The notes beneath the pieces were generated by a model. The model was not told the origin of the DNA. It saw nothing but the letters and a program-made list of their open reading frames with translations, and did not search any database. Of a stretch of 36,568 nt of DNA, positions 129-26,049 are shown one piece after another. Position numbers and translations under genes: made by a program. Numbering within the stretch: the first letter of the stretch is position 1; each line of letters begins with the position of its first letter. Origin of the DNA: a virus; the IMG/VR virus record IMGVR_UViG_3300020607_000011, positions 1 through 36,568 of that record; one strand, written 5' to 3'.

Positions 129-947
129 TTAAAACACCCCCATCATGCCGAGCATGTCTTGCTGCATTTTGGGGCCTGCGGCTGCCTTGTCATTCCAGAT
201 CAGGAGTTCCATAGCGTCGGTGCCGCTGCCGCCTCCTACTGTGTATTTGATCGGGCGGGTTTCCATGTGGAAGCCTGCGAACTCGGCGCGGATGTCCGGG
301 TGGTCGTTGATGCTGATGATCATCGCTCCTTGAACGCTTCTGGCCAGGCTGGCCATCGTTTGAAAGTGCTCCCATCCAAACTCGCAGCCGTAGCCTGCGG
401 TCTCCCAATACGGGGGATCGAGATAGTGCAGTGTGTGGGGGCGGTCGTATTTCTCCACTACCTTTTCCCAGCTCAGGTGCTCGATGTAGGTGCTTTGCAT
501 GCGCAGATGCGCTGCGCTCATGTCTTCCTCCAGGCGAAACAGGTTCAGCCTGGGCGGTGTGGTGGTTGCTGTGCCGAATGTTTGATCATCGACCTTGCCA
601 CCGAATGCGAGTTTTTGCAGGTAATAGAAACGCGCAGCGCGCTGAATATCGGTGAGTGTTTCGGGCGGTGTGGCCTGATGCCAGTCGTAGATTTTGCGGC
701 TGCTGAGCGCCCATTTGAACTGCCTGACAAGCTCTTCCGGGTGATGCTTGAGCACCCGGTACAGATTAATCAGTTCGTTGTTGACATCGTTGAGCACCTC
801 AACGTGCGCCGGTGGCTTGGCGAAATACAGCGCACCAGCCCCTGCGAAGGCTTCAACGTAGCATTCGTGCTTGGGGAATTTCGGCAGAATCCAGTCTACC
901 AGGCGTGCTTTGCCGCCCATCCAGGGAATTACGGGTTTGACCTGCAT
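129..947 (-). CDS. dam: D12-class (Dam-type) adenine-N6 DNA methyltransferase
   Basis: This 272-residue protein should transfer a methyl group from S-adenosylmethionine to adenine in DNA. It shows the D12/MethyltransfD12 hallmarks in order: PWMGGK near residues 8-13, the SAM-binding AFAGAGAL at about 33-40, and the catalytic DPPY at 177-180. The ATG at 947 is chosen because GGAGG precedes it by 4 bases. An in-frame ATG at 1037 would add 30 residues but has no Shine-Dalgarno, and D12 enzymes usually start close to the P-x-x-GGK motif. It is the last gene of the late operon, next to the phage end, where Mu carries its DNA-modification gene mom. An anti-restriction role is therefore likely. The target sequence cannot be told from the protein alone. 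Confidence 0.9.
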   Translation of the reverse strand: MQVKPVIPWMGGKARLVDWILPKFPKHECYVEAFAGAGALYFAKPPAHVEVLNDVNNELINLYRVLKHHPEELVRQFKWALSSRKIYDWHQATPPETLTDIQRAARFYYLQKLAFGGKVDDQTFGTATTTPPRLNLFRLEEDMSAAHLRMQSTYIEHLSWEKVVEKYDRPHTLHYLDPPYWETAGYGCEFGWEHFQTMASLARSVQGAMIISINDHPDIRAEFAGFHMETRPIKYTVGGGSGTDAMELLIWNDKAAAGPKMQQDMLGMMGVF

Positions 948-1075
948 GCTGCCTCCGTCATAGGCTCTACCGGCTGTGTACACAGTGGCGAGGCCATTGG
1001 TTTCTGCAGGTGCGTTGTCACCTAAAGAAGCGGTCATTCCGGTGTTGCTGCACCGGGGTGGTCGCCTCGTCTTAC

Positions 1076-3910
1076 TTATCGCTTATCCACTACAGCCGAC
1101 AGGTCTAAGGTGCTTGTCGAGTAAGTGATTGTCATTGTTGCCCCAGGTGCGCTACCACCCATAGTCGCCTGTAGCCGCAATTCTATTCGGTAGGTTTCTG
1201 TGCCCGTTATTTCGAAGCTGTCGTTGGCACCAAAAACATCCTCGTTTCCAGACGTCGGAAACGGGGCTTGAGCTGCACCTTTGCCGCCGCCTTGTTTGTA
1301 TAGTGTCCGGGATTTTTGATAGTCAAAATGACCCGTGTCTGTACTGTCTCGCAACTGCATAGTGAGATAACTGCCGGTATAGAGGGTGCTACCGGAATAG
1401 CTCACAGACTCAAACAATATATTGCCGTTGGAGTTATAGATGACTCTGTCCCCCGCACTGAGAGCGCCTAGATTTATCGACGCCAACACAATGGTTTCGT
1501 ACCCGGCGTTTATATCTTTCTGTATTAGCCACTCATCGCTATTAACGGGCAACACGGTGTCGTGATGGTGTTCCGATACTGCATTTGCAACCAGTCCCGA
1601 TGTTGTAACCAATGCGGGTTCGAACGTGTAGGTTTCCAGTCTGGAGTTAGCCGATACATTGCCGCTAGTGTCAACCAAAACCACGCCGATGGTGTGTTCC
1701 CCGGCGGGGATCTGGTTGGTCTCCCAGGGGACAGATTTAATCAAGCCAGTGTGTAGCAGTATGCCGCCGTTGGCGACACTGAGGTCGTCGTAGTTTGAGT
1801 GGATGCCAGCGCGGGCGCGGAATTCGTAGCCTGCAAAATCAACCGGCAGTTCGCCACTGATCGTGACTTCAAGCTTGCGATTGCTGGTGGGCAGTTCGGT
1901 GATGGTGAGGTCAGTTGGCGAAGGTGGCGGGCTGGTTTTGCCGATAACGGTATGGCCGTTGAGATACACCCAACTGCTGCGCTGGACCAGGGTGTTGACG
2001 GTGCGCACGCGCATGTCGTAGCTCTGGCCGTCGATGACGCCGACGATGTACTGATCTAAGGCGCGCGCAGGGGCTGCGGGTGTCCATGCTGAAAACGCGC
2101 TGAGTTTGTACTCAACTTCAAACTGTGCGGCGAATGCGTCGTTGTTTTGCCAACGCAGGTATATGCGGCTGAGCAGCACACCGGCGTTGATTACTACATG
2201 CGTCTCGCCGCTCTCTGCGTACAACAGGCTGGGCGGCACGACGTAGCTGGGGCTGGGCATGGTGGTGTTGGGTGCCAGATCGTAGCGAGTGGCCTCACCG
2301 TCGTTCCAGTCGTAAACCCCACTGGCGTATTCTTGCAGCAGCAGGTTGGCGCCGCCATCAGCCAGGCCCCACTTTTTCACGTGAAACAGTTTTTGCGCCC
2401 AACCGAGTTCGTCAATAGTGACCGGCACGACGTCGCCCACTGAATACTGCAAAGCCTTGTATTTTGCCGGGAACACCACGTGCAGCGCCTGGCGGGAATC
2501 TTCAAGTAGAATTTTGCCGAGACGCTGGCAGCGGGTTTGATCATCAGCGAGTGGTAGCTGTATCTCCTGGATGATCTCTTCACCATCCTCGGCGGCATAG
2601 GTCGGGTTTTTGTGCGGCGGGAAATCGGTGTTTTGATGGTGGTTTAAAGGATCAATAAAGGTGCCTTTAACGCCGTTAAAAAGCTCGCGGCGTGGTGCGC
2701 GGGGCGCAAACAGGATGTCGTCGCGAAGGTCGTCGGCATTTAGCTCAGGCTCGTAGGGTTGGGCCACCGCTTGGCCTGAGATGATGTGCCACTGGCCGTG
2801 CTGCCAGACGGCTTGGCCAGCGCCGTAAACCATCATCGCTTCGAGTGTTTCAATGCGGCTGCCGTCCATGAGTATCACGCCGTTCATTGTGTAACGCGGC
2901 TGCGTGCCAGCGCCAACCGTGACGCCCTCGTCGCAGTTGTTGGCCGATGCGATCCATTTTGCGCTCTCGATCTCGCTCGTTTGCACACCAAAGCCATAGC
3001 TCTGACGCATGTAATCGGCGACGCACAGCGCCCAATTGTTGCTGTATTTCGTGAGTGTGTCGCGCGGGTCGTAGATGTCGTTCTTGCCCGTGATGTCGAC
3101 AGAAATATTGGGCACGCCGTTGGGGTATGCATCGGTATTAAACGCCAAGCGGCAATAAAGATAGGCGCAGCCGCGCAGGCGATGGTTTGCCGTCCACTCG
3201 GGCACTTCGGCAACAAGGTCGGCATCGGCGGACTGGCTGCTATCGCCGAGATGTTTGTTGATGCGGTACGCCGTGGCGGCTTGTTGCGTGACGCGAACAT
3301 AAAATATGTTGCTCACGCCCACTACGGCAAACGATACGCCCGCCGTGGCACCGGTGATTTGTATCTGACCGTTGCCGATGTCAGCGGCAATGTAGTCGGG
3401 TTCGTCATCGATGAGGGTGGCCAACGCACCGATGCTGGCTGCCGAATGTGTTGTGCCAGCCACTTCGAGTTGATAGCCGCCCGCAGCGTCACCGCATTGC
3501 ACCGTGACAATGTGCGGCGTGTTGAACTGATCCCACTCGCTGACCGGGCGGTCGTTGAAATACACCTGGTCCAGCGATTGAACGCGATGGCCCGCCACGG
3601 GTATGACTAAATGCAGGTATTGTTGCTGGTCACCAGTGACAGCTGCAAAAACAATCGGCCCGGAAACTCGCGCGGTGCCGTAAACAAGCTGGCGCGGGGC
3701 GTCGCTCTGGCGGAACATCACCGTGCGGCCTTTTTGCTGGATGCCGTTGTTGTTGCCGCCGGGTTTGTTGGCGAAGACCTGATTGACTGCCTGAGTTGTG
3801 GCGTAAAGGGCCAGACTGTTGAAAAAAACCTGTTGAAACGCCACAGATGTGCCACCTGTCGCGACAGCCAATGTGGCCGTAATAGCTGCCTGTGTCACTG
3901 CCTCTGACAT
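1076..3910 (-). CDS. Tail tip / central fibre protein, J-like (receptor binding)
   Basis: This 944-residue protein is the largest tail gene product and sits at the end of the tail cluster, as J of lambda-type siphophages does. The N-terminal 40 residues are small and hydrophobic. Residues 60-110 carry a pattern typical of TipJ proteins (S.APRQLVYG followed by SGPIVF). A fibronectin-III-like stretch beginning SPPPSPTDLTITELP lies near residues 665-760. The C-terminal 190 residues are beta-rich and likely to contact the receptor. GGAG lies 8 bases before the ATG at 3910. By family, J-like proteins form the tail tip hub and decide host range. The assignment is by position, length and these motifs. 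Confidence 0.82.
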   Translation of the reverse strand: MSEAVTQAAITATLAVATGGTSVAFQQVFFNSLALYATTQAVNQVFANKPGGNNNGIQQKGRTVMFRQSDAPRQLVYGTARVSGPIVFAAVTGDQQQYLHLVIPVAGHRVQSLDQVYFNDRPVSEWDQFNTPHIVTVQCGDAAGGYQLEVAGTTHSAASIGALATLIDDEPDYIAADIGNGQIQITGATAGVSFAVVGVSNIFYVRVTQQAATAYRINKHLGDSSQSADADLVAEVPEWTANHRLRGCAYLYCRLAFNTDAYPNGVPNISVDITGKNDIYDPRDTLTKYSNNWALCVADYMRQSYGFGVQTSEIESAKWIASANNCDEGVTVGAGTQPRYTMNGVILMDGSRIETLEAMMVYGAGQAVWQHGQWHIISGQAVAQPYEPELNADDLRDDILFAPRAPRRELFNGVKGTFIDPLNHHQNTDFPPHKNPTYAAEDGEEIIQEIQLPLADDQTRCQRLGKILLEDSRQALHVVFPAKYKALQYSVGDVVPVTIDELGWAQKLFHVKKWGLADGGANLLLQEYASGVYDWNDGEATRYDLAPNTTMPSPSYVVPPSLLYAESGETHVVINAGVLLSRIYLRWQNNDAFAAQFEVEYKLSAFSAWTPAAPARALDQYIVGVIDGQSYDMRVRTVNTLVQRSSWVYLNGHTVIGKTSPPPSPTDLTITELPTSNRKLEVTISGELPVDFAGYEFRARAGIHSNYDDLSVANGGILLHTGLIKSVPWETNQIPAGEHTIGVVLVDTSGNVSANSRLETYTFEPALVTTSGLVANAVSEHHHDTVLPVNSDEWLIQKDINAGYETIVLASINLGALSAGDRVIYNSNGNILFESVSYSGSTLYTGSYLTMQLRDSTDTGHFDYQKSRTLYKQGGGKGAAQAPFPTSGNEDVFGANDSFEITGTETYRIELRLQATMGGSAPGATMTITYSTSTLDLSAVVDKR

Positions 3911-3947
3911 GTTCTATACTCCGACATCAGGTTATGGAGAAACTGTT

Positions 3948-4217
3948 ATGAATAAGGTGCTGTTTTTTATTGCGTGCATGGTTTGCGGTAGCGTTAATGC
4001 TGACAGCGTTACTGAGCCGGTCGTAAGCCCCACCGGCTGGTCAAGCCAAAACAAACCGCAGCACAGCGTGGCGATCACTCGCGCCATGAAAAGCGCCGCG
4101 ACGGAGTGCAACGGCGGCTTTAACATCAACGAGCAGTACGTTAGCAAGGCCGGTGAGGACTGGTTTTTTGTGCTCGATTACACCTGCCGCCCGGATGACG
4201 CGCCACCCAGCCTGTAG
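3948..4217 (+). CDS. Small secreted protein (moron-like), only + strand gene in the late region
   Basis: This 89-residue protein starts at the ATG at 3948, with GGAGA at 3936-3940 and 7 bases of spacing. A longer in-frame reading from 3849 lies inside the tail-tip gene and is rejected. Residues 1-18 form a signal peptide: Met-Asn-Lys, a hydrophobic core LFFIACMVCG, then a V-N-A cleavage site. The mature part of about 71 residues is soluble and has two cysteines (TEC and DYTC) that could form a disulphide in the periplasm. The gene points against all its neighbours, lies between the J-like and K-like genes, and has a TATACT -10-like hexamer at 3914-3919. This is the arrangement of a moron expressed from its own promoter in the lysogen. 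I do not recognise the family. Superinfection exclusion or another envelope function is inference only. Confidence 0.68.
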   Translation: MNKVLFFIACMVCGSVNADSVTEPVVSPTGWSSQNKPQHSVAITRAMKSAATECNGGFNINEQYVSKAGEDWFFVLDYTCRPDDAPPSL

Positions 4218-4219
4218 GC

Positions 4220-4693
4220 TTAAACCACCCACGCCTGAATCCAGTCGCGCATTGGTATCGTGGCGACACCATCCGGCCCTGCCGCCACTGCCGTTTTACC
4301 GGTGCAGATGGCCAGCGCCTTGCCGGTAACGACCCGCACCAACAACAAATCACCCACTTGAGCAAACATGGGCAGCATCGGCTGGCCGAGCTGTTGTTTT
4401 ACCGCCCCTTCCAGCGTTTTAATGAAGCGGTTTTGTTTGAGCATGAACGCAGCCTCTTTTTTGCTGTTGTAGCGGCCATGCCATTGCTGCATCAAATCTT
4501 CCCCGGTCATCGACTCAATGCATGCGGCGGCAAAATGCGCGCAGTCGTGGGTGCCCCAATCGAACGGCTTGTCGCGTAACTGCTCGATGGTTTTGTGCAG
4601 ATCGGCGCGCCAGTTGTCGTGCCGGGTGAGTACGACTTTAGCGCCGGAGCGCTTGCGGCCTGCCATCAGCACTTGATTCATCGCGGCCCCCAT
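4220..4693 (-). CDS. Tail-tip assembly protein with NlpC/P60-like Cys motif (DUF6950-like)
   Basis: This 157-residue protein has FDWGTHDCAHFAAACIE around residues 44-60, which resembles the catalytic cysteine region of NlpC/P60 peptidases (DC-x-x-F). The DUF6950 family, seen next to J-like genes in many siphophages, has this form. It probably helps tail-tip assembly or cleaves peptidoglycan peptides during DNA entry, as K-type proteins do. A clear catalytic histidine partner cannot be named from sequence alone. The start is uncertain: ATG codons at 4693, 4681 and 4666 are all in frame. The one at 4693 has AAAGAG upstream and overlaps the next gene by 16 bases, which favours translational coupling. 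Confidence 0.72.
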   Translation of the reverse strand: MGAAMNQVLMAGRKRSGAKVVLTRHDNWRADLHKTIEQLRDKPFDWGTHDCAHFAAACIESMTGEDLMQQWHGRYNSKKEAAFMLKQNRFIKTLEGAVKQQLGQPMLPMFAQVGDLLLVRVVTGKALAICTGKTAVAAGPDGVATIPMRDWIQAWVV

Positions 4694-5238
4694 ACCAACT
4701 CTTTGTTCGGCATTTCGCTGACGAATTCAAAACCCAGGTCGCCGGGGTATTGCGCCTGCTGCTCGGCGTTGGTGTAGCGGACGGTGCGTGGGCGCTCCCA
4801 GTCTGCGAGGCGGTTTTCGATGCTTAGCGTGAGGGTGTTTTTTTCGCCGATCTGGCCGTCGAGCGTGTCCATGCGCCCCGTCCAAGGGCCGATGGGTTCG
4901 CCGATGATTTGTAGCGTGTCGGGGTTTAAAAAAGCCACGCGAAGCAGCGCGGCCCGGCCCTGTATGTGTTCTTGCAGGGCGATGCTGACCAGTGCGGGGT
5001 TGAGCCCGTTTAATTCAAGCTGCACACCCCAGGCTTGCAGCTCGCCCGATTCTTCAATCTCCGAAATGCCGCCCAGATCACCCACGCCCAGGTAGGTGTT
5101 GCCGTTGAAGACAATATCACCGACGGCGCTGTGGGCGTAGACCATACCTGCGGGGAAGTCGAGATCGACCATAATGATTTGGCTAACGCTAGACTGATCT
5201 AGCTCGGCAAGGACGTCGGGGTGTACGGTGCGGCTCAT
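4678..5238 (-). CDS. Siphovirus distal-tail / tip-associated protein (BR0599-like)
   Basis: This 186-residue, beta-rich protein has no signal peptide or membrane segment. The stretch VYAHSAVGDIVFNGNTYLG near residues 33-51 and the later SIENRLADWERPR are typical of a conserved tail protein found just before the NlpC/K-like gene (DUF2163/BR0599-like) in siphophages and gene transfer agents. The role is therefore structural, at the distal end of the tail tube. Its ATG overlaps the stop of the upstream gene by 4 bases (5235-5238), so the two are translationally coupled. The family assignment rests on context and partial pattern matching. Confidence 0.65.
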   Translation of the reverse strand: MSRTVHPDVLAELDQSSVSQIIMVDLDFPAGMVYAHSAVGDIVFNGNTYLGVGDLGGISEIEESGELQAWGVQLELNGLNPALVSIALQEHIQGRAALLRVAFLNPDTLQIIGEPIGPWTGRMDTLDGQIGEKNTLTLSIENRLADWERPRTVRYTNAEQQAQYPGDLGFEFVSEMPNKELVWGPR

Positions 5239-5846
5239 GCGGTGATGTCCTCAATGAACGTGATTGAAGTGCCGCTCAGGTACCCGGTTTGGGTAATTTC
5301 CCCCTCGTTGTTGCTCGCCAACATCATCACGCTGGTGCAATAGCTCGTGCCTAAAACGAGCAAATCAGCAGGGCTTGAACGCAGCGGTGGCATAAACTCG
5401 ATAGTGGCTGCGCCGGTGCCGTCGCTGTCGACGTCGGCGGTGAGCACCTTCTGTTCTTCGCCGATCTGAATGCGGTCACCGGCCACCATTAAGCCCGTGG
5501 TGCTTAGCGGCCAGTTGTTGGTGTTGAGGCTGTTGCCGCTCTGGCCTGCGCCGCTGACGCGCGGCGTAAAACCGGCATGGCCGACGCCCTGGGTAGTCTC
5601 GCGCCCGTGGTGCCAAACCCTCACGCGATGCGCCAGGCCGTTGAGCTTGGCCAGCAGCGATTCGAGCACGCGAATCTCGCCGGGTTTCAGCGCCTGCACT
5701 TGCAGGGTGGCCTGCCAGGTCGTGCCTGGGCGAGTGTTTGTTGTGATGGCACCGCTGAGTGGGCTTTTGTGCGCGGCGGCATTGCTGACCAGCGTCCAGC
5801 GGATCATCCCAGGCCGAACAGCGGTGGGCCAGTCGTAAATATTCAT
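5235..5846 (-). CDS. Distal tail structural protein
   Basis: This 203-residue protein lies between the tape measure and the tip genes, where siphophages encode the distal-tail ring. The N-terminus, with W-P at residues 6-7 and PGMIRWTL soon after, is followed by beta-rich sequence. AATIEFMPPLRSSPA near residue 150 resembles a motif common in tail-tip proteins of B3-like phages (a membrane-proximal lipid or sugar-binding-like fold has been proposed for some). AGGAC lies 8 bases before the ATG at 5846. The gene overlaps its neighbours by 4 bases on each side. The specific function is inferred from position. Confidence 0.62.
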   Translation of the reverse strand: MNIYDWPTAVRPGMIRWTLVSNAAAHKSPLSGAITTNTRPGTTWQATLQVQALKPGEIRVLESLLAKLNGLAHRVRVWHHGRETTQGVGHAGFTPRVSGAGQSGNSLNTNNWPLSTTGLMVAGDRIQIGEEQKVLTADVDSDGTGAATIEFMPPLRSSPADLLVLGTSYCTSVMMLASNNEGEITQTGYLSGTSITFIEDITA

Positions 5847-11203: not shown

Positions 11204-11758
11204 TCAGTGCAGTCGGGTGATGTTGATCCGGTGCGGATGCAGCCGGGTGATCTGAACAGTGTGTGGGTAAAGGCGGGTGATGGTGATGTACGCAATCTGG
11301 CTCTCTGCATCAAAAGCCACCGCTGCGTCCAAGCCCGTCATAGTGTCGGCGACTTGCAGCAGCGCCTCAACAACCATCGACTCTGCTGCGATGGCGTTAT
11401 CCGCGAGGCTGAGCTGGGCAGAAACCGTTAACGCATCATTCGCCGTGGCGGTATCGGCAATCGTTTTGAATATTTGCTGAATCGCATTGACCGCGTCGGT
11501 GGCGGTGGCGGTGTCAGCAACCTGCAGGCTGGCGGCAATAAAAAACGCATCATTGGCCAGGCTGGCATCGCTGATTTGCAAACTGACCAGTGCGGGCGCT
11601 GTCACATCGCTGGCGCTGGCGCTGTCGGCTACCGACGCCGATACGGACAGCACGGCAGCATCTGAAGCCGTTGCGCTATCACTGACCGATTTCATGATTG
11701 CAGCCGCGAGTGCAAGACTGCGGCCCAGGGCAAAGGTGGCGAGCGGTGCGCGAATCAT
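11204..11758 (-). CDS. Repeat-rich probable fibre protein
   Basis: This 184-residue protein is dominated by seven imperfect 18-20-residue repeats beginning near residues 25, 43, 62, 80, 100, 118 and 136, with the core (V/I/L)-(S/A)-D-x-A-x-A-x-D-A. The C-terminus has a second, 10-residue repeat (ITITRLYPHT, VQITRLHPHR, INITRLH). Such Ala/Asp/Ser/Thr periodicity suggests a beta-solenoid or trimeric fibre shaft. The gene overlaps its upstream neighbour by 4 bases. It sits between capsid and connector genes, so it may be a head fibre rather than a tail fibre. No named family is recognised. Confidence 0.55.
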   Translation of the reverse strand: MIRAPLATFALGRSLALAAAIMKSVSDSATASDAAVLSVSASVADSASASDVTAPALVSLQISDASLANDAFFIAASLQVADTATATDAVNAIQQIFKTIADTATANDALTVSAQLSLADNAIAAESMVVEALLQVADTMTGLDAAVAFDAESQIAYITITRLYPHTVQITRLHPHRINITRLH

Positions 11759-18149: not shown

Positions 18150-18356
18150 TTATGTGTTTACCCACGCCAGCCCTATAAAATCTCTGCGGCCCGTATTAAT
18201 ATCTTCAACGTGATGAATAACATCCCCATCAGCAACTTCGTGTTTTCCAATAACCTTAGCGACAGCGCTGCCTAATGCAAAACTCACTGTTGTTTCATCG
18301 CCAACACATAACAAGTCGTTTAACTCGGAATCGTCTTTCTTTGCTTCGCTCATCAT
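18150..18356 (-). CDS. Small protein of unknown function, probable integron-type cassette gene
   Basis: This 68-residue protein starts with two Met codons and then SEAKKDDSELNDLL; its first 15 residues nearly repeat those of the gene at 25798-26049. The rest differs (VSFALGSAVAKVIGKHEVADG and then VIHHVEDINTGRRDFIGLAW). That section looks like a small beta barrel and resembles cassette-encoded DUF-type proteins. GGAGAGG precedes the start. The Shine-Dalgarno, start and first codons lie in an attC-like site (18306-18383), and the TAA stop (18150-18152) is in the GTTA box at 18149. It separates the portal and F genes, which are normally adjacent in Mu-like phages. The function is unknown. Confidence 0.75.
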   Translation of the reverse strand: MMSEAKKDDSELNDLLCVGDETTVSFALGSAVAKVIGKHEVADGDVIHHVEDINTGRRDFIGLAWVNT

Positions 18357-20000: not shown

Positions 20001-21641
20001 CTAAAAACCTCCGGCTATTGACGGCAGATCGTCGTCATCAGCGTGATGACCGAGCCAGCTGTTTGCGGCTGGGGCAGCGGTGAATTCAATGGGTGAACTC
20101 AAATTGCGGCTGGCAAACCACATGAGCGCACCGGCGATGGCGGCATCGCCGTGGCGAACCAGGTCGGGCTCTTTGAGGTCGCGGCTTTCGAGTTTGGGCA
20201 CCATTGGTATGCCGTCCACCTCGACTACCGCGCGATGGTCTTCGAGCAGGTTGATGTCTTTGGGCAGCTCGATCATGCCGTCCTGAAATGCGTCGACGTA
20301 GTGGCGCATTTCTTCGCCGTACCATTTACGGCTGAGGGTGACCTGGTGAATGCCTGCACCGAATTTATCAGCCGTGTACTCGGCCAGGGTCTGGCCGGGG
20401 CCGGTCGCGTCGATTGCTCCACCGGCAAATTTGGGCAGGTTGTCAATCAACGCCCAGAGGATTTGCTCCTGCTGTCGGGTGGGCACGTTATGCAGCTCAA
20501 TGACGAACGGTACCGAGCGCTTTAGTGTTTGGCCAATGGCAGCAGGTTTGATAATGCTGAAATGTCGGTGCCGGGCAAAGTCCATGCCGAATACGTGCCG
20601 CAGGGACTCTTTAAGCAGCGGATAAAGCGGCTTTAAATGGTCGTTAATCCAGTCTTCACCCCAGCGGATTCGCTCGTACTCGTTGCGTTCAGCAAAGTCG
20701 TCAGGCAGCGCCAGACGCAGCACCGGGCGCTCTTCTGGCATGGCGTTTTCGACCCACACGCCGGGGATCGCCACGCCGGTGCCGTCACGCGGTATTGCAT
20801 CCAGCTCTTCGCGCATCGCAGCTTTGCGCGGGCCGTAGCTGTTGCGGATGCGGTTGTACCATTCCTTTTTGCCTGCTGCTGTGGGCGGCTTGTTGCGCAT
20901 AAAGCAGACGCGCTCATACAGGCCGTTTTCGACGGCGTCGTCAAACGTGACGCGGTAGACCACGGCATCTTTGCCGTATTGGCCGCTTTCAATGTCTTTA
21001 ATGAGCTGATTGAAGGGATTGGATTTGCCGTTGTGCGTACTGATGATGCGAATTTTACCGCCCCAGATCAGCAGCGCGGTGGCCGACTCGATAACGCCTT
21101 CGACATTGGCATGGAACGCGGCCTCGTCAATGACCACGATGCCCTGCAGTCCACGGATGTTTTCGGGACGCGAACTCAGTGCCGTGATGTGATGCCCGCT
21201 GGCAAAGCGGATGCGGTAACTGCTAATCGAGCGGCTGCTGCCGTCCGGTTGCTGGTCTTCAAACAAAAACTCCTCAATTGAGCTGACGCCAGTGTTTTGC
21301 GCGCGGGCGATGAGCTTGGCGAATTTGGCGCAATAGCCGATAAACTCCAGGCCTTTTTCTTTTGTGTCGCCGATGTAGTAAACATTGTCGCCGCCGGCGC
21401 TTTTACGGCTGGCTGCGGTAATCGTGTCGTCGTGCGCTTCGGCAAACGTGACGCCGGTTCGACGCCCTTTATCGGCGACCTTTATGTCGGATTTGATGCC
21501 CACCCATTCGGCCTGGTGCTTCATCAACAAGCCCATGCCGGTGATGTCGATGTCGTCGCGAATATCGCGGGCGCGCGGCGGCAGTTCGTCCCAGTCGATG
21601 GTGCGTTGGGTGTCCTGGAGCGGGGTTAAGTTTTTTGACAT
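20001..21641 (-). CDS. Terminase large subunit, Mu gp28-like
   Basis: This 546-residue packaging motor has an ATPase with a Walker A-like VADKGRRTGVTFAEA around residues 55-69 and a Walker B GIVVIDEAAFHANVEG near 168. The nuclease domain shows FGMDFARHRHFSIIKPAA, and GGAIDATGPGQTLAEY near 410, with acidic residues expected for the RNase H-like fold. It packages DNA into proheads by headful cutting, starting from the phage end in Mu-like phages. It overlaps the methyltransferase gene by 16 bases, with GAGG 7 bases before the ATG. Confidence 0.92.
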   Translation of the reverse strand: MSKNLTPLQDTQRTIDWDELPPRARDIRDDIDITGMGLLMKHQAEWVGIKSDIKVADKGRRTGVTFAEAHDDTITAASRKSAGGDNVYYIGDTKEKGLEFIGYCAKFAKLIARAQNTGVSSIEEFLFEDQQPDGSSRSISSYRIRFASGHHITALSSRPENIRGLQGIVVIDEAAFHANVEGVIESATALLIWGGKIRIISTHNGKSNPFNQLIKDIESGQYGKDAVVYRVTFDDAVENGLYERVCFMRNKPPTAAGKKEWYNRIRNSYGPRKAAMREELDAIPRDGTGVAIPGVWVENAMPEERPVLRLALPDDFAERNEYERIRWGEDWINDHLKPLYPLLKESLRHVFGMDFARHRHFSIIKPAAIGQTLKRSVPFVIELHNVPTRQQEQILWALIDNLPKFAGGAIDATGPGQTLAEYTADKFGAGIHQVTLSRKWYGEEMRHYVDAFQDGMIELPKDINLLEDHRAVVEVDGIPMVPKLESRDLKEPDLVRHGDAAIAGALMWFASRNLSSPIEFTAAPAANSWLGHHADDDDLPSIAGGF

Positions 21642-22429
21642 AACTCGGCCTCAGTTCCCTGCAGCCTTTCTACTGAAATGTCAAAATATTCCGGCACCAC
21701 TTCAATGCCGTGATACTGCAGACCATGTTTTAGGCATGCTACGCCGGTCGATGATGAACCCGCGAACGGATCAACGACCAGATCGCCCGGAGCTACACAG
21801 GCAATCAACTCTTCCATCAGTGCTACCGGCTTTTCTGTCAGGTGTTTTTTTCCGTTGGTTTTTGTGGTCGCCTTGATAATGCCGGGCTGGTAAACATCAT
21901 CACGCGGCAGGCGATTTCCGCCCCACAAAATATACTCTGCCTGCATTCGAAACCCGCCCTTGTAAGGCCGGGAAGCGTTGCCCTTGTCCCAGACCAAGCA
22001 GCCGCGCAGGCGCAAGCCGCTTTCAAAGATGAGTTCTGTCATCTGAGGCAAATGCCGCCAGTCGATAAAAAACGCGAAAAACGACTGAGGCTTCAGCACA
22101 CGACTTGTTTGCGCTAGTGAACTTAGAATGATCTCTTTCCATACGCTTTCTGGCAAACTATCACCGGCAAAGTCAGGTAGGTTGTCTTTATACTTCGCAT
22201 TAGCACCGACGTATTTATCCTTCGTGAATTTCATCATCTCGCGTGTGGTCATCCCGCCCGACCCGTAGGGTGGGTCTGTGATCACCGCGCCGACACTATT
22301 GGACGGCATTTGCGCCATGACGACTTGGTTGCTACCCATGCTCATTTTCCAGCCGTTACCCTGCTTCTCTTTGATTTGATCCAGCAGCGGCTGACCGCAC
22401 GTTTGGCAGGACTCCATAAATTCACTCAT
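21626..22429 (-). CDS. DNA methyltransferase (DPPY, N4/N6 beta-type order)
   Basis: This 267-residue amino-methyltransferase has the catalytic DPPY at 52-55 first and the SAM-binding DPFAGSSSTG at 220-229 last, the order of beta-class enzymes (N4-cytosine or N6-adenine). The N-terminus carries CQTCG, a possible half zinc knuckle. The target recognition segment probably lies between residues 60 and 200. It is inserted between small and large terminase genes, 4 bases after the former. It has no restriction partner here, so it is an orphan enzyme. Protection from host restriction is the likely role, and this is the second methyltransferase of the phage. Confidence 0.87.
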   Translation of the reverse strand: MSEFMESCQTCGQPLLDQIKEKQGNGWKMSMGSNQVVMAQMPSNSVGAVITDPPYGSGGMTTREMMKFTKDKYVGANAKYKDNLPDFAGDSLPESVWKEIILSSLAQTSRVLKPQSFFAFFIDWRHLPQMTELIFESGLRLRGCLVWDKGNASRPYKGGFRMQAEYILWGGNRLPRDDVYQPGIIKATTKTNGKKHLTEKPVALMEELIACVAPGDLVVDPFAGSSSTGVACLKHGLQYHGIEVVPEYFDISVERLQGTEAELCQKT

Positions 22430-23700: not shown

Positions 23701-23924
23701 CGTTGCCCCCATTTTTCGTGCGCGGTTTTGCAGTCAACACAGCGGGCGGCTAGCGGGTGGATTTTCAGCCGCTCTTTGGGGATCGGGTCGCCGCAATCAA
23801 TGCAGATAATCTGGCCAAATTCGTCCTTTTCCTGATCCGGTTGGGGGGCGCGATTTTGGGCGTTTTTGAGCGCGTGGTCGCGCTGCATCATTTCCAGGTC
23901 TTTGGCGTGGTCGAGGTCGTCCAT
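23697..23924 (-). CDS. DksA/TraR-type C4 zinc finger protein
   Basis: This 75-residue protein has an N-terminal helix rich in Asp and Met (DLDHAKDLEMMQRDHALKN) and a C-terminal zinc finger with CIDCGDPIP and ARCVDCKTAHEKW, giving Cys-x2-Cys...Cys-x2-Cys. Small TraR/DksA-like proteins bind in the secondary channel of RNA polymerase and mimic DksA-ppGpp effects. Many Mu-like phages carry one near the lysis genes. It overlaps the hydrolase gene by one base and the gp25-like gene by 4. It may tune host transcription late in infection. Confidence 0.88.
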   Translation of the reverse strand: MDDLDHAKDLEMMQRDHALKNAQNRAPQPDQEKDEFGQIICIDCGDPIPKERLKIHPLAARCVDCKTAHEKWGQR

Positions 23925-24499
23925 CAGGGCTTGGCTCCACGGGCGGTTTTGTTGATGTGGTCAGCCAGTGGCACGAGGTTGGGGGAGCGGAAATAGTGCG
24001 AATGGTTTAAGGAAAACCGCCCCGGCGAGCTGTCAATAAAAGGCTTGTTTTGAATGCGCGGGTCGGGTGCGCCTTTGTAGCCTGATTGGCCCATCGCGCC
24101 GAAATCGTGCCACCAGAGCATTTTGCCGAGCGTGAGCGCGACGTCGTATTGGTTGTGGTAGTTATAAAGGTGCGTCATGCCGTGGCGCGGGAACGTGAAG
24201 TCGTCGTTCATCGCTGCGCCGAAAAACCACACCCGACCAAAACGAGCACCCATTTCCATAGCTCGCAGGGTCAACAGGCAGCCGTAGCTGTGGGCAATCA
24301 CCCAGTCGCCGGGTTGGTGGTGTTCAAGGATGATTTCGGCATTTTTGCGCTGCCGGGTGCGTGAGCGTGCGCCGAATGCGGAAACGCGCGGGTAACTGAT
24401 GTCAACACCGCTGTGGCCCAGTTTGTTGAGTTCGCTGTAAAGTCGGTCGATGTTGCCCTCGCCGTTGCTGCGAATACCGTTGATGCTCAAAAATCTCAT
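23924..24499 (-). CDS. Alpha/beta-hydrolase-like protein in the lysis region
   Basis: This 191-residue protein has a classic strand-nucleophile elbow, WVIAHSYGCLLTLRA, with Ser71 in AHSYG (a variant of G-x-S-x-G). Asp119 in NQYDVAL and His166 or His168 in NHSHYF fall where the rest of a catalytic triad is expected. The N-terminus (FLSINGIRSNGEGNIDRLY) fits the first strand and oxyanion loop. There is no signal peptide, so it acts in the cytoplasm or leaves with lysis. The substrate is unknown: lipid, ester or peptide bonds are all possible. It is coupled with the amidase by a 4-base overlap, so a role in lysis (LysB-like esterase) is possible but not shown. Confidence 0.72.
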   Translation of the reverse strand: MRFLSINGIRSNGEGNIDRLYSELNKLGHSGVDISYPRVSAFGARSRTRQRKNAEIILEHHQPGDWVIAHSYGCLLTLRAMEMGARFGRVWFFGAAMNDDFTFPRHGMTHLYNYHNQYDVALTLGKMLWWHDFGAMGQSGYKGAPDPRIQNKPFIDSSPGRFSLNHSHYFRSPNLVPLADHINKTARGAKP

Positions 24500-24999
24500 T
24501 GGTTATTTCCTTTGCAAGCTGGGTAGCGATTGGGGTGGCTGAGGTCGGGCCAGTGGTTGGCGTTTAGCCAGGTCTGCACGTCGAAGCCGGGGCAGGTTTT
24601 GCCGCTGTCGAGGTCGCAGTGCCCTAATACGTGCTGATTGCCGATGTTGAATAGACTTTGCAAACCGAGCACCAGGCGGCGCAGGGATTGCAATTGGCAT
24701 TCGGTGTATTGATCGTGGCCGATCAGGCAGATGCCGACGCTGTTGGCGTTGTGTCCTTTCACGTGCGCACCGGTTTCGTTCAGCGCCCGACCGGGCGTGA
24801 TCTGCCCGGCCAGGTCGATGACGTAGTGATAACCGATATGCCGCAGGCGTGGTGATACGTTGTTTTTTACTTCACGTTTAAACCCTCGTTCGTGGTGCCA
24901 ATTGTCTATGTCTTCTGCGCTCCACCACGCGCCATTGGGCACATCCGCACAATGGATGATGATGCGGTCAATGTTGGCGGTGTCGCGAAGGTTGGACAT
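24496..24999 (-). CDS. Endolysin, N-acetylmuramoyl-L-alanine amidase (Amidase_2, T7 lysozyme-like)
   Basis: This 167-residue zinc amidase cuts between N-acetylmuramic acid and L-alanine in peptidoglycan. The zinc ligands His16 (IIIHCADV), His127 (VLGHCDL) and Cys136 (KTCPGFD), with Tyr58 (GYHYVI) and Lys134, line up with those of T7 lysozyme (His17, His122, Cys130, Tyr46, Lys128). There is no signal peptide, so it would need a holin, but no clear holin gene was found. It is the first gene of the packaging/lysis late operon. Its proposed promoter starts RNA about 23 bases before the ATG at 24999. Confidence 0.92.
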   Translation of the reverse strand: MSNLRDTANIDRIIIHCADVPNGAWWSAEDIDNWHHERGFKREVKNNVSPRLRHIGYHYVIDLAGQITPGRALNETGAHVKGHNANSVGICLIGHDQYTECQLQSLRRLVLGLQSLFNIGNQHVLGHCDLDSGKTCPGFDVQTWLNANHWPDLSHPNRYPACKGNNQ

Positions 25000-25728: not shown

Positions 25729-25803
25729 TTATAACAAGTCGGTCAAGTTCGCCCTTCGGGCGGGACGCTCGCAAGCTCGCGCCCCTTACCTCGGTCGTTA
25801 CCT
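25729..25803 (+). other. attC-like integron recombination site (site 3)
   Basis: TTATAAC (25729-25735) and GTTACCT (25797-25803) are the outer boxes, 75 bases apart end to end. The inner arms TCAAGTTCGCCC and GCGCCCCTTACC match the L'' (TCAAG) and L' (CCCTTA) arms of gammaproteobacterial attC sites. Between them are two small hairpins (GCCCTTCGGGC and GCGCGAGCTTGCGAGC on the - strand). The same order and spacing occur in Vibrio repeats (TATAACAAACGCCTCAAG ... CCCCTTAGGCGGGCGTTA). It is the most convincing of the four sites. Confidence 0.68.
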
Positions 25804-26049
25804 GGCGCAAACATGCGCTTCATCTTCAAGAATAAAGGTCATGCAGTCCGGGCATTCACCTACGACCTTTTCACCTTCGTCCTGCAACCCCTTCGCCACG
25901 CCTTCCAGTAATTCGCCCAGTGCGTTTCGGTCTTTTGCATACGGCGCGGAGAACTCCAATATTCCGTCTCCGAAAGTAAGTCGGTAACGAACATTGCCAC
26001 GTAACAATGCGTTCAACTCAAAATCGTCTTTCTTTGCTTCGCTCATCAT
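25798..26049 (-). CDS. Small zinc-ribbon-like protein, probable cassette gene
   Basis: This 83-residue protein has an N-terminus of two Mets and SEAKKDDFELNALL, nearly the same as in the gene at 18150-18356; from residue 16 on it is unrelated. The body is a strand-rich segment (VRYRLTFGDGILEFSAPYAK) and a helix (ALGELLEGVAKGLQ). The C-terminus VVGECPDCMTFILEDEAHVC has Cys-x2-Cys plus His and Cys, a likely zinc ribbon. GGAGAGG and the start codons lie inside the attC-like site at 25999-26076, and the TAA stop (25798-25800) is in the GTTA box of the next site. It is probably nucleic-acid or protein binding; the specific function is unknown. Confidence 0.75.
   Translation of the reverse strand: MMSEAKKDDFELNALLRGNVRYRLTFGDGILEFSAPYAKDRNALGELLEGVAKGLQDEGEKVVGECPDCMTFILEDEAHVCAR

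What the first reader, a model, noticed from the sequence alone, without database searches (positions are those of the whole stretch)
3911..4217. Lone + strand secreted protein within the tail operon
An 89-residue protein with signal peptide and two cysteines is transcribed against the late operon between the tail-tip and K-like genes, with its own good ribosome-binding site and a possible -10 (TATACT, 3914-3919). This position and orientation fit a lysogenic-conversion gene. A periplasmic exclusion factor beside the receptor-binding gene would be logical. No known family was recognised.
Basis: partly seen in the sequence, partly recalled or inferred. Interest (0 to 1): 0.58.

Follow-up and report, generated by a model that had tools for sequence, protein, structure and literature searches.

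The report
Orphan exported-protein moron beside tail-tip gene
A bacterial virus carries a small extra gene, facing the opposite way between two tail genes, that looks real and seems to make a protein exported by the infected bacterium; it may keep out competing viruses, but it has no known relative and its job is untested.

Summary
A + strand ATG frame of 89 codons lies at 3948-4217, antisense to the tail operon, filling a 309-base gap between J (1076-3910) and a DUF6950 (K-like) gene (4220-4693). It is very probably a gene: its codon use scores above all 64 spurious frames compared and within the range of the phage's genes. It has a GGAG site, a promoter-like sequence (10 of 1216 + strand windows have one), a strong Sec-type signal peptide and two mature cysteines. 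No relative was found in any collection searched.

The neighbours explain it. In 135 of 142 related loci K-like and J abut, overlap or lie at most 55 bases apart; one Mesorhizobium phage has other inserted genes. So this is a moron: an extra gene slipped between two tail genes. phi80 has an annotated lipoprotein moron (MorF) with its own promoter between tail genes I and J. I propose a periplasmic lysogenic-conversion protein, most likely superinfection exclusion. Gene, export signal and insertion are supported; function is inference. Ordinary in kind, new in sequence: new member of a known kind.

The parts
3948..4217 (+). moron frame, 89 aa, ATG start
   Evidence: codon score above 64 of 64 spurious frames
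3948..4001 (+). predicted signal peptide, residues 1-18 (cut read at VNA|D)
   Evidence: K at 3, hydrophobic core mean 3.1 (Kyte-Doolittle), highest of 14 starts passing a home-made filter; cut site is my reading
4002..4214 (+). mature part, 71 residues, Cys54 and Cys80; modelled as helix plus beta hairpin
   Evidence: AlphaFold2 mean pLDDT 63.9 without alignment
3892..3920 (+). sigma-70 promoter-like pair GTGTCA-17-TATACT
   Evidence: 9 of 12 consensus letters
3936..3939 (+). GGAG ribosome-binding site, 8 bases before the ATG
   Evidence: sequence
1076..3910 (-). J-like central tail fibre / tail-tip protein, neighbour
   Evidence: PF13550 E 1.4e-6; phrog_5616 E 2e-78, phrog_31 E 2.1e-62
4220..4693 (-). 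DUF6950 (K-like) tail gene, neighbour
   Evidence: PF22262 E 4.5e-40; phrog_2134
4678..5238 (-). L-like minor tail protein, context
   Evidence: phrog_2048 E 9.3e-55
5235..5846 (-). distal tail protein, context
   Evidence: phrog_1302 E 1.1e-34

Best explanation
The frame is a moron: a single gene with its own promoter and ribosome-binding site, inserted antisense between the DUF6950 and J genes of a Mu-like phage that carries a siphophage-type tail tip. In the prophage, while the late operon is silent, host RNA polymerase makes a short mRNA from its sigma-70-like promoter. The 89-residue product is exported by Sec, cut after about residue 18 and left as a 71-residue periplasmic protein, a helix packed on a beta hairpin closed by a Cys54-Cys80 disulphide. 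It most likely protects the lysogen from phages using the same tail tip, by binding the periplasmic face of the receptor or the DNA entry path (superinfection exclusion; it would work like Cor/Llp without being one). Supported by sequence: coding status, export signal, insertion. Inferred: expression in lysogens, cleavage, disulphide. Guessed: exclusion and its target.
For: Codon score and shuffles; signal-peptide-like start with the most hydrophobic core in the window; promoter-like pair and GGAG; DUF6950 and J closed up (at most 55 bases apart) in 135 of 142 related loci, so the frame is an addition; precedents: phi80 MorF, exported, own promoter, between I and J, small genes at the same junction in a Mesorhizobium phage, one with a twin-arginine-like leader, an antisense gene for a hydrophobic protein in the tail operon of Mu-like phage Bise; independently transcribed genes antisense to prophage lytic genes described as typical accessory loci (PMC7067206, passages); small disulphide-bearing exclusion proteins encoded beside the receptor-binding gene in T5 (PMC9586334, passages).
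Against: No homologue, so no conservation test and no function by kinship. No lipobox, unlike Cor and Llp; no similarity to Cor. G+C and codon use do not look foreign. The -35 is weak and no convincing + strand terminator follows. Position beside J shows no function by itself.
Confidence: 0.4

Rival explanations
1. Exported moron that helps the lysogen in another way (envelope stress, inhibition of a host or rival enzyme, adhesion), with no role in excluding phages.
For: Same gene, export and insertion evidence. PMC7067206 (passage) cites a study in which 12 of 14 tested morons in P. aeruginosa changed diverse phenotypes, not only phage immunity.
Against: Position beside J and the resemblance in layout to exclusion genes favour exclusion, but only weakly.
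Confidence: 0.38
2. The + strand transcript matters more than the protein: read-through past 4217 makes antisense RNA over the DUF6950 and L-like genes, silencing them in an incoming sibling phage, as the antisense RNA STnc6030 of prophage BTP1 does over tailspike and injection genes.
For: Antisense position; no convincing + strand terminator (one weak stem at 4379-4393, near the shuffled expectation); precedent in PMC7067206 (passages).
Against: Coding bias and signal peptide show selection on the protein; the transcript end is unknown.
Confidence: 0.08
3. A lytic-cycle or virion factor (tail-tip or lysis accessory) that happens to be read from the other strand.
For: It lies among tail genes.
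Against: Absent from the same module in readable relatives; opposite to the late operon.
Confidence: 0.06
4. Not a gene: a chance open frame in a spacer or in the remnant of another insertion.
For: No relatives; a frame this long arises in 37 (ATG) or 132 (any start) of 5000 shuffles.
Against: Codon score, leader, ribosome site, promoter-like site and near-exact filling of the gap coincide.
Confidence: 0.08

Closest known systems
phi80 MorF moron (FN582354, between tail genes I and J)
   Same: Single gene with its own promoter, exported product, immediately upstream of J, absent from N15 at that place
   Different: Same strand as the tail operon, annotated as a lipoprotein, 177 codons in NC_021190, own terminator annotated; no sequence similarity
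Cor of N15 and phi80
   Same: Small exported phage protein encoded near J; candidate exclusion role
   Different: Cor has a lipobox (N15: LLLSGC) and lies downstream of J on the operon strand; BLASTP E 1.0 and 1.7 for the pair
Llp of phage T5
   Same: Small periplasmic protein beside the receptor-binding gene; intramolecular disulphide (PMC9586334, passages)
   Different: Llp is a lipoprotein; its sequence was not compared, because the accession tried was not held
YecR-like lipoproteins (PF13992)
   Same: Helix, Cys, then strands ending in Y-x-C; one occurs in Mu-like relative L042
   Different: No profile match for this protein, BLASTP E 0.37; no lipobox
STnc6030 antisense RNA of prophage BTP1
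   Same: Transcript antisense to tail genes in a prophage (PMC7067206, passages)
   Different: STnc6030 has no frame over 60 aa; here a protein is the main product

Membership tests
Moron (genetic kind) | Single gene inserted between two genes that are adjacent in related phages | tested here: met
   135 of 142 loci have the two neighbours closed up, at most 55 bases apart
Moron (genetic kind) | Own promoter | tested here: inconclusive
   Promoter-like pair, 9 of 12 letters, uncommon by chance; no transcript data
Moron (genetic kind) | Own terminator | tested here: inconclusive
   Only a weak + strand stem at 4379-4393, near the shuffled expectation
Moron (genetic kind) | Base composition unlike the neighbours | tested here: not met
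   G+C and codon use are like the phage's genes; PMC4378225 (passage) says morons 'usually' differ, so this is common rather than defining
Cor/Llp exclusion lipoproteins | Lipobox and lipidated cysteine | tested here: not met
   Cys10 and Cys13 are not in an acceptable lipobox; Cys10 would leave a 9-residue leader (sequence; rule recalled)
Cor/Llp exclusion lipoproteins | Sequence similarity to Cor | tested here: not met
   BLASTP E 1.0 and 1.7
Cor/Llp exclusion lipoproteins | Intramolecular disulphide | tested here: inconclusive
   Two mature cysteines at ends of modelled helix and hairpin; model of low confidence
Cor/Llp exclusion lipoproteins | Binds the receptor and blocks superinfection | not testable with these tools
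   needs experiment
YecR-like lipoprotein (PF13992) | Profile match over the cut-off of 27 bits | tested here: not met
   No match in the window at E <= 0.01; not listed at E up to 10

The most novel reading that the evidence does not exclude
One short transcription unit is two exclusion devices at once: it makes a new kind of non-lipidated, disulphide-closed periplasmic exclusion protein, and its 3' read-through is antisense RNA over the K-like tail gene of any incoming sibling phage.
Probability: 0.06. Interest if true: 0.65.

Novelty: new member of a known kind. Interest (0 to 1): 0.3.

Why it matters
It shows how an antisense frame can be told from noise in a phage, and points to the junction upstream of J as a place where unrelated phages have put genes for exported proteins (here; phi80 MorF; possibly Mesorhizobium phage P1). 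If it excludes, it would be an unlipidated counterpart of Cor/Llp in a Mu-like phage. As it stands it is one orphan moron of unproven function.

Tried and rejected
Homologue in the nearest terminase relative: a weak match in record G001 (E 0.0046) proved to lie antisense to myovirus-type baseplate genes and was rejected as chance. Plasmid tblastn matches (E 2-9), including a hypothetical protein in a copper-resistance region, and genome matches (E 0.097 and worse) were rejected as chance; so was Pfam BNIP3 (E 0.07, below its cut-off). YecR-likeness was tried because of the Cys-GY...YxC look and did not hold. Fold searches of low-confidence models gave no match with E <= 0.001. A core tail role is rejected because readable relatives lack the frame. 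Papers; none of those listings showed a paper on MorF, which says nothing beyond those terms. Read in passages only: PMC9586334, PMC4378225, PMC7067206, PMC11436027.

Full report
Setting. The window is a whole virus record of 36,568 bases as held (completeness not given). It is a Mu-like transposable phage: Mu-type transposase, AAA ATPase (MuB-like by position), Mu gpT-like major head protein, S24-type repressor, terminase 58-59% identical to that of Stenotrophomonas phages Bhz63 and phiSHP3. Its tail-tip genes are of another stock: distal tail, L-like, DUF6950 and J-like proteins that match siphophages such as Acinetobacter Loki and Roseobacter CRP phages at roughly 30-36% identity. DUF6950 was found in 0 of 50 Mu-like records related by terminase (no positive control in that set). 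No phage record matched window bases 1-25,000 at DNA level.

The frame. ATG 3948 to TAG 4217, + strand. GGAG lies 8 bases before the ATG; a promoter-like pair (GTGTCA, 17 bases, TATACT) at 3892-3920 would start RNA about 20 bases before the ATG (start inferred). The frame begins 37 bases beyond the first base of J and ends 2 bases before the stop of the DUF6950 gene, both on the other strand, so it nearly fills the gap.

Is it a gene? A codon log-odds score trained on 40 gene models of this phage against their other five frames gives 21.9 bits for 89 codons, 0.25 per codon. All 64 spurious frames of at least 70 aa inside genes score lower; the gene models score 0.11-0.63. The five other frames of the gap are negative. 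Length alone is weaker evidence: 37 of 5000 shuffles give an ATG frame as long (all). The promoter-like pair is found in 10 of 1216 windows of the + strand and in 160 of 5000 shuffles of the local 90 bases. In a filter for signal-peptide-like starts, 14 starts passed among 200 frames of at least 60 aa and this one had the most hydrophobic core (3.1 against at most 2.43). The filter is home-made, not SignalP; it placed its first acceptable cut at residue 14, and I read the cut at VNA|D, residue 18.

The protein. The mature part has 71 residues with Cys54 and Cys80. AlphaFold2 without an alignment gives a helix (36-53) and a beta hairpin (58-68, 71-80), mean pLDDT 63.9, blocks of 70-76 in the core; the full-length model was poorer, 53.2. 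The cysteines sit at the ends of helix and hairpin, which suggests a disulphide (inference). Searches without a credible relative: Pfam, PHROGs, NCBIfam, PADLOC, PDB sequences, phages and plasmids by tblastn, viral and genome contigs by pattern, 50 related virus records, 14 genomes, 369 genomes of one class with 0 matches and no positive control, and folds.

The junction in relatives. I gave the survey 142 loci with a DUF6950 gene (brought in). They are loci, not independent phages; at least two contigs are held twice. The script found DUF6950 and J overlapping or within 20 bases in 123, 55 bases apart in one (L133), more than 100 apart in nine, and unresolved in nine. Reading the outliers: in L170, L171, L172, L177, L180, L189 and L224 the J frame overlaps or begins at the DUF6950 stop and the script had missed it (in L224 J is frameshifted); the same holds for L160, L174, L178 and, by an open J-type frame up to the contig end, L199. 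So 135 of 142 are closed up. The rest: L124 broken genes; L154 (Synechococcus phage) a 155-base gap without a frame over 45 aa; L156 (Mesorhizobium phage P1) four small annotated genes, one antisense; L003 and L166 contig ends; L134 and L137 broken genes. The antisense exported-protein gene is thus an insertion peculiar to this phage among those seen. No relative is close, so its age is unknown.

Precedents. In phi80, MorF, annotated as a putative lipoprotein and 'moron gene product' with its own -35, -10, start site and terminator, sits between tail genes I and J. N15 has only a stem-loop annotated there. Cor lies downstream of J in both. In Mesorhizobium phage P1 one inserted gene begins MKRRSFLAMLG, which I read as a twin-arginine leader; its antisense neighbour shows no leader. 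Pseudomonas phage Bise, Mu-like by terminase and transposase annotation, has an antisense gene for a protein with long hydrophobic stretches between tail chaperone and tape measure. phiSHP3 has no annotated antisense gene in its late region. PMC7067206 (passages) describes an independently transcribed prophage gene antisense to lytic genes as characteristic of accessory loci, and an antisense RNA that excludes its own phage.

Mechanism. I commit to a lysogen-expressed, Sec-exported, periplasmic, disulphide-closed protein that excludes phages using the same receptor or entry path. My estimates: real gene 0.9; exported 0.85; expressed in lysogens 0.7 to 0.8; exclusion given these about 0.5; about 0.4 overall, the steps being correlated. 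Llp of T5 is the best worked model: it binds FhuA from the periplasm and folds outer loops inward (PMC9586334, passages). This protein works like that only by conjecture and is not a member of that family: no lipobox, no similarity to Cor.

Verdict. It is an orphan moron, ordinary in kind.

Noticed in passing
window 23924-24499 (-), beside amidase 24496-24999 (-): A 191-aa protein with a look of an alpha/beta hydrolase (AHSYG-type motif, my reading) overlaps by 4 bases the gene of an N-acetylmuramoyl-L-alanine amidase (Amidase_2); no Pfam or PHROGs match. Possible esterase in a lysis cassette.
   Followed up: partly
window 129-1037 (-) and 21626-22429 (-): Two DNA methyltransferases of different kinds: a D12-class N6-adenine enzyme at the end of the late region and an N6_N4_Mtase directly beside the terminase.
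   Followed up: no
window 18150-18356 (-) and 25798-26049 (-): Two short frames 7 kb apart begin with nearly the same residues (MMSEAKKDD[S/F]ELN), suggesting a duplicated piece.
   Followed up: no
window 11204-11758 (-): 184-aa protein with repeated '(A)DTATA(T/N)DA'-like segments and a tail of three near-repeats 'ITRL(Y/H)PH'; only a weak PHROGs match to a family of unknown function (E 0.0055).
   Followed up: partly
L042 4087-4422 (+): A Mu-like relative carries a YecR-like lipoprotein gene (PF13992, E 3.7e-21) beside a D12-type methyltransferase frame.
   Followed up: partly
L156 1667-2717: Mesorhizobium phage P1 has four small genes between the DUF6950-type gene and J, one with a twin-arginine-like leader and one antisense.
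   Followed up: partly
L241 23024-23314 (-): Pseudomonas phage Bise has an antisense gene for a 96-aa protein with long hydrophobic stretches between the tail chaperone and tape-measure genes, a possible membrane-protein moron.
   Followed up: partly
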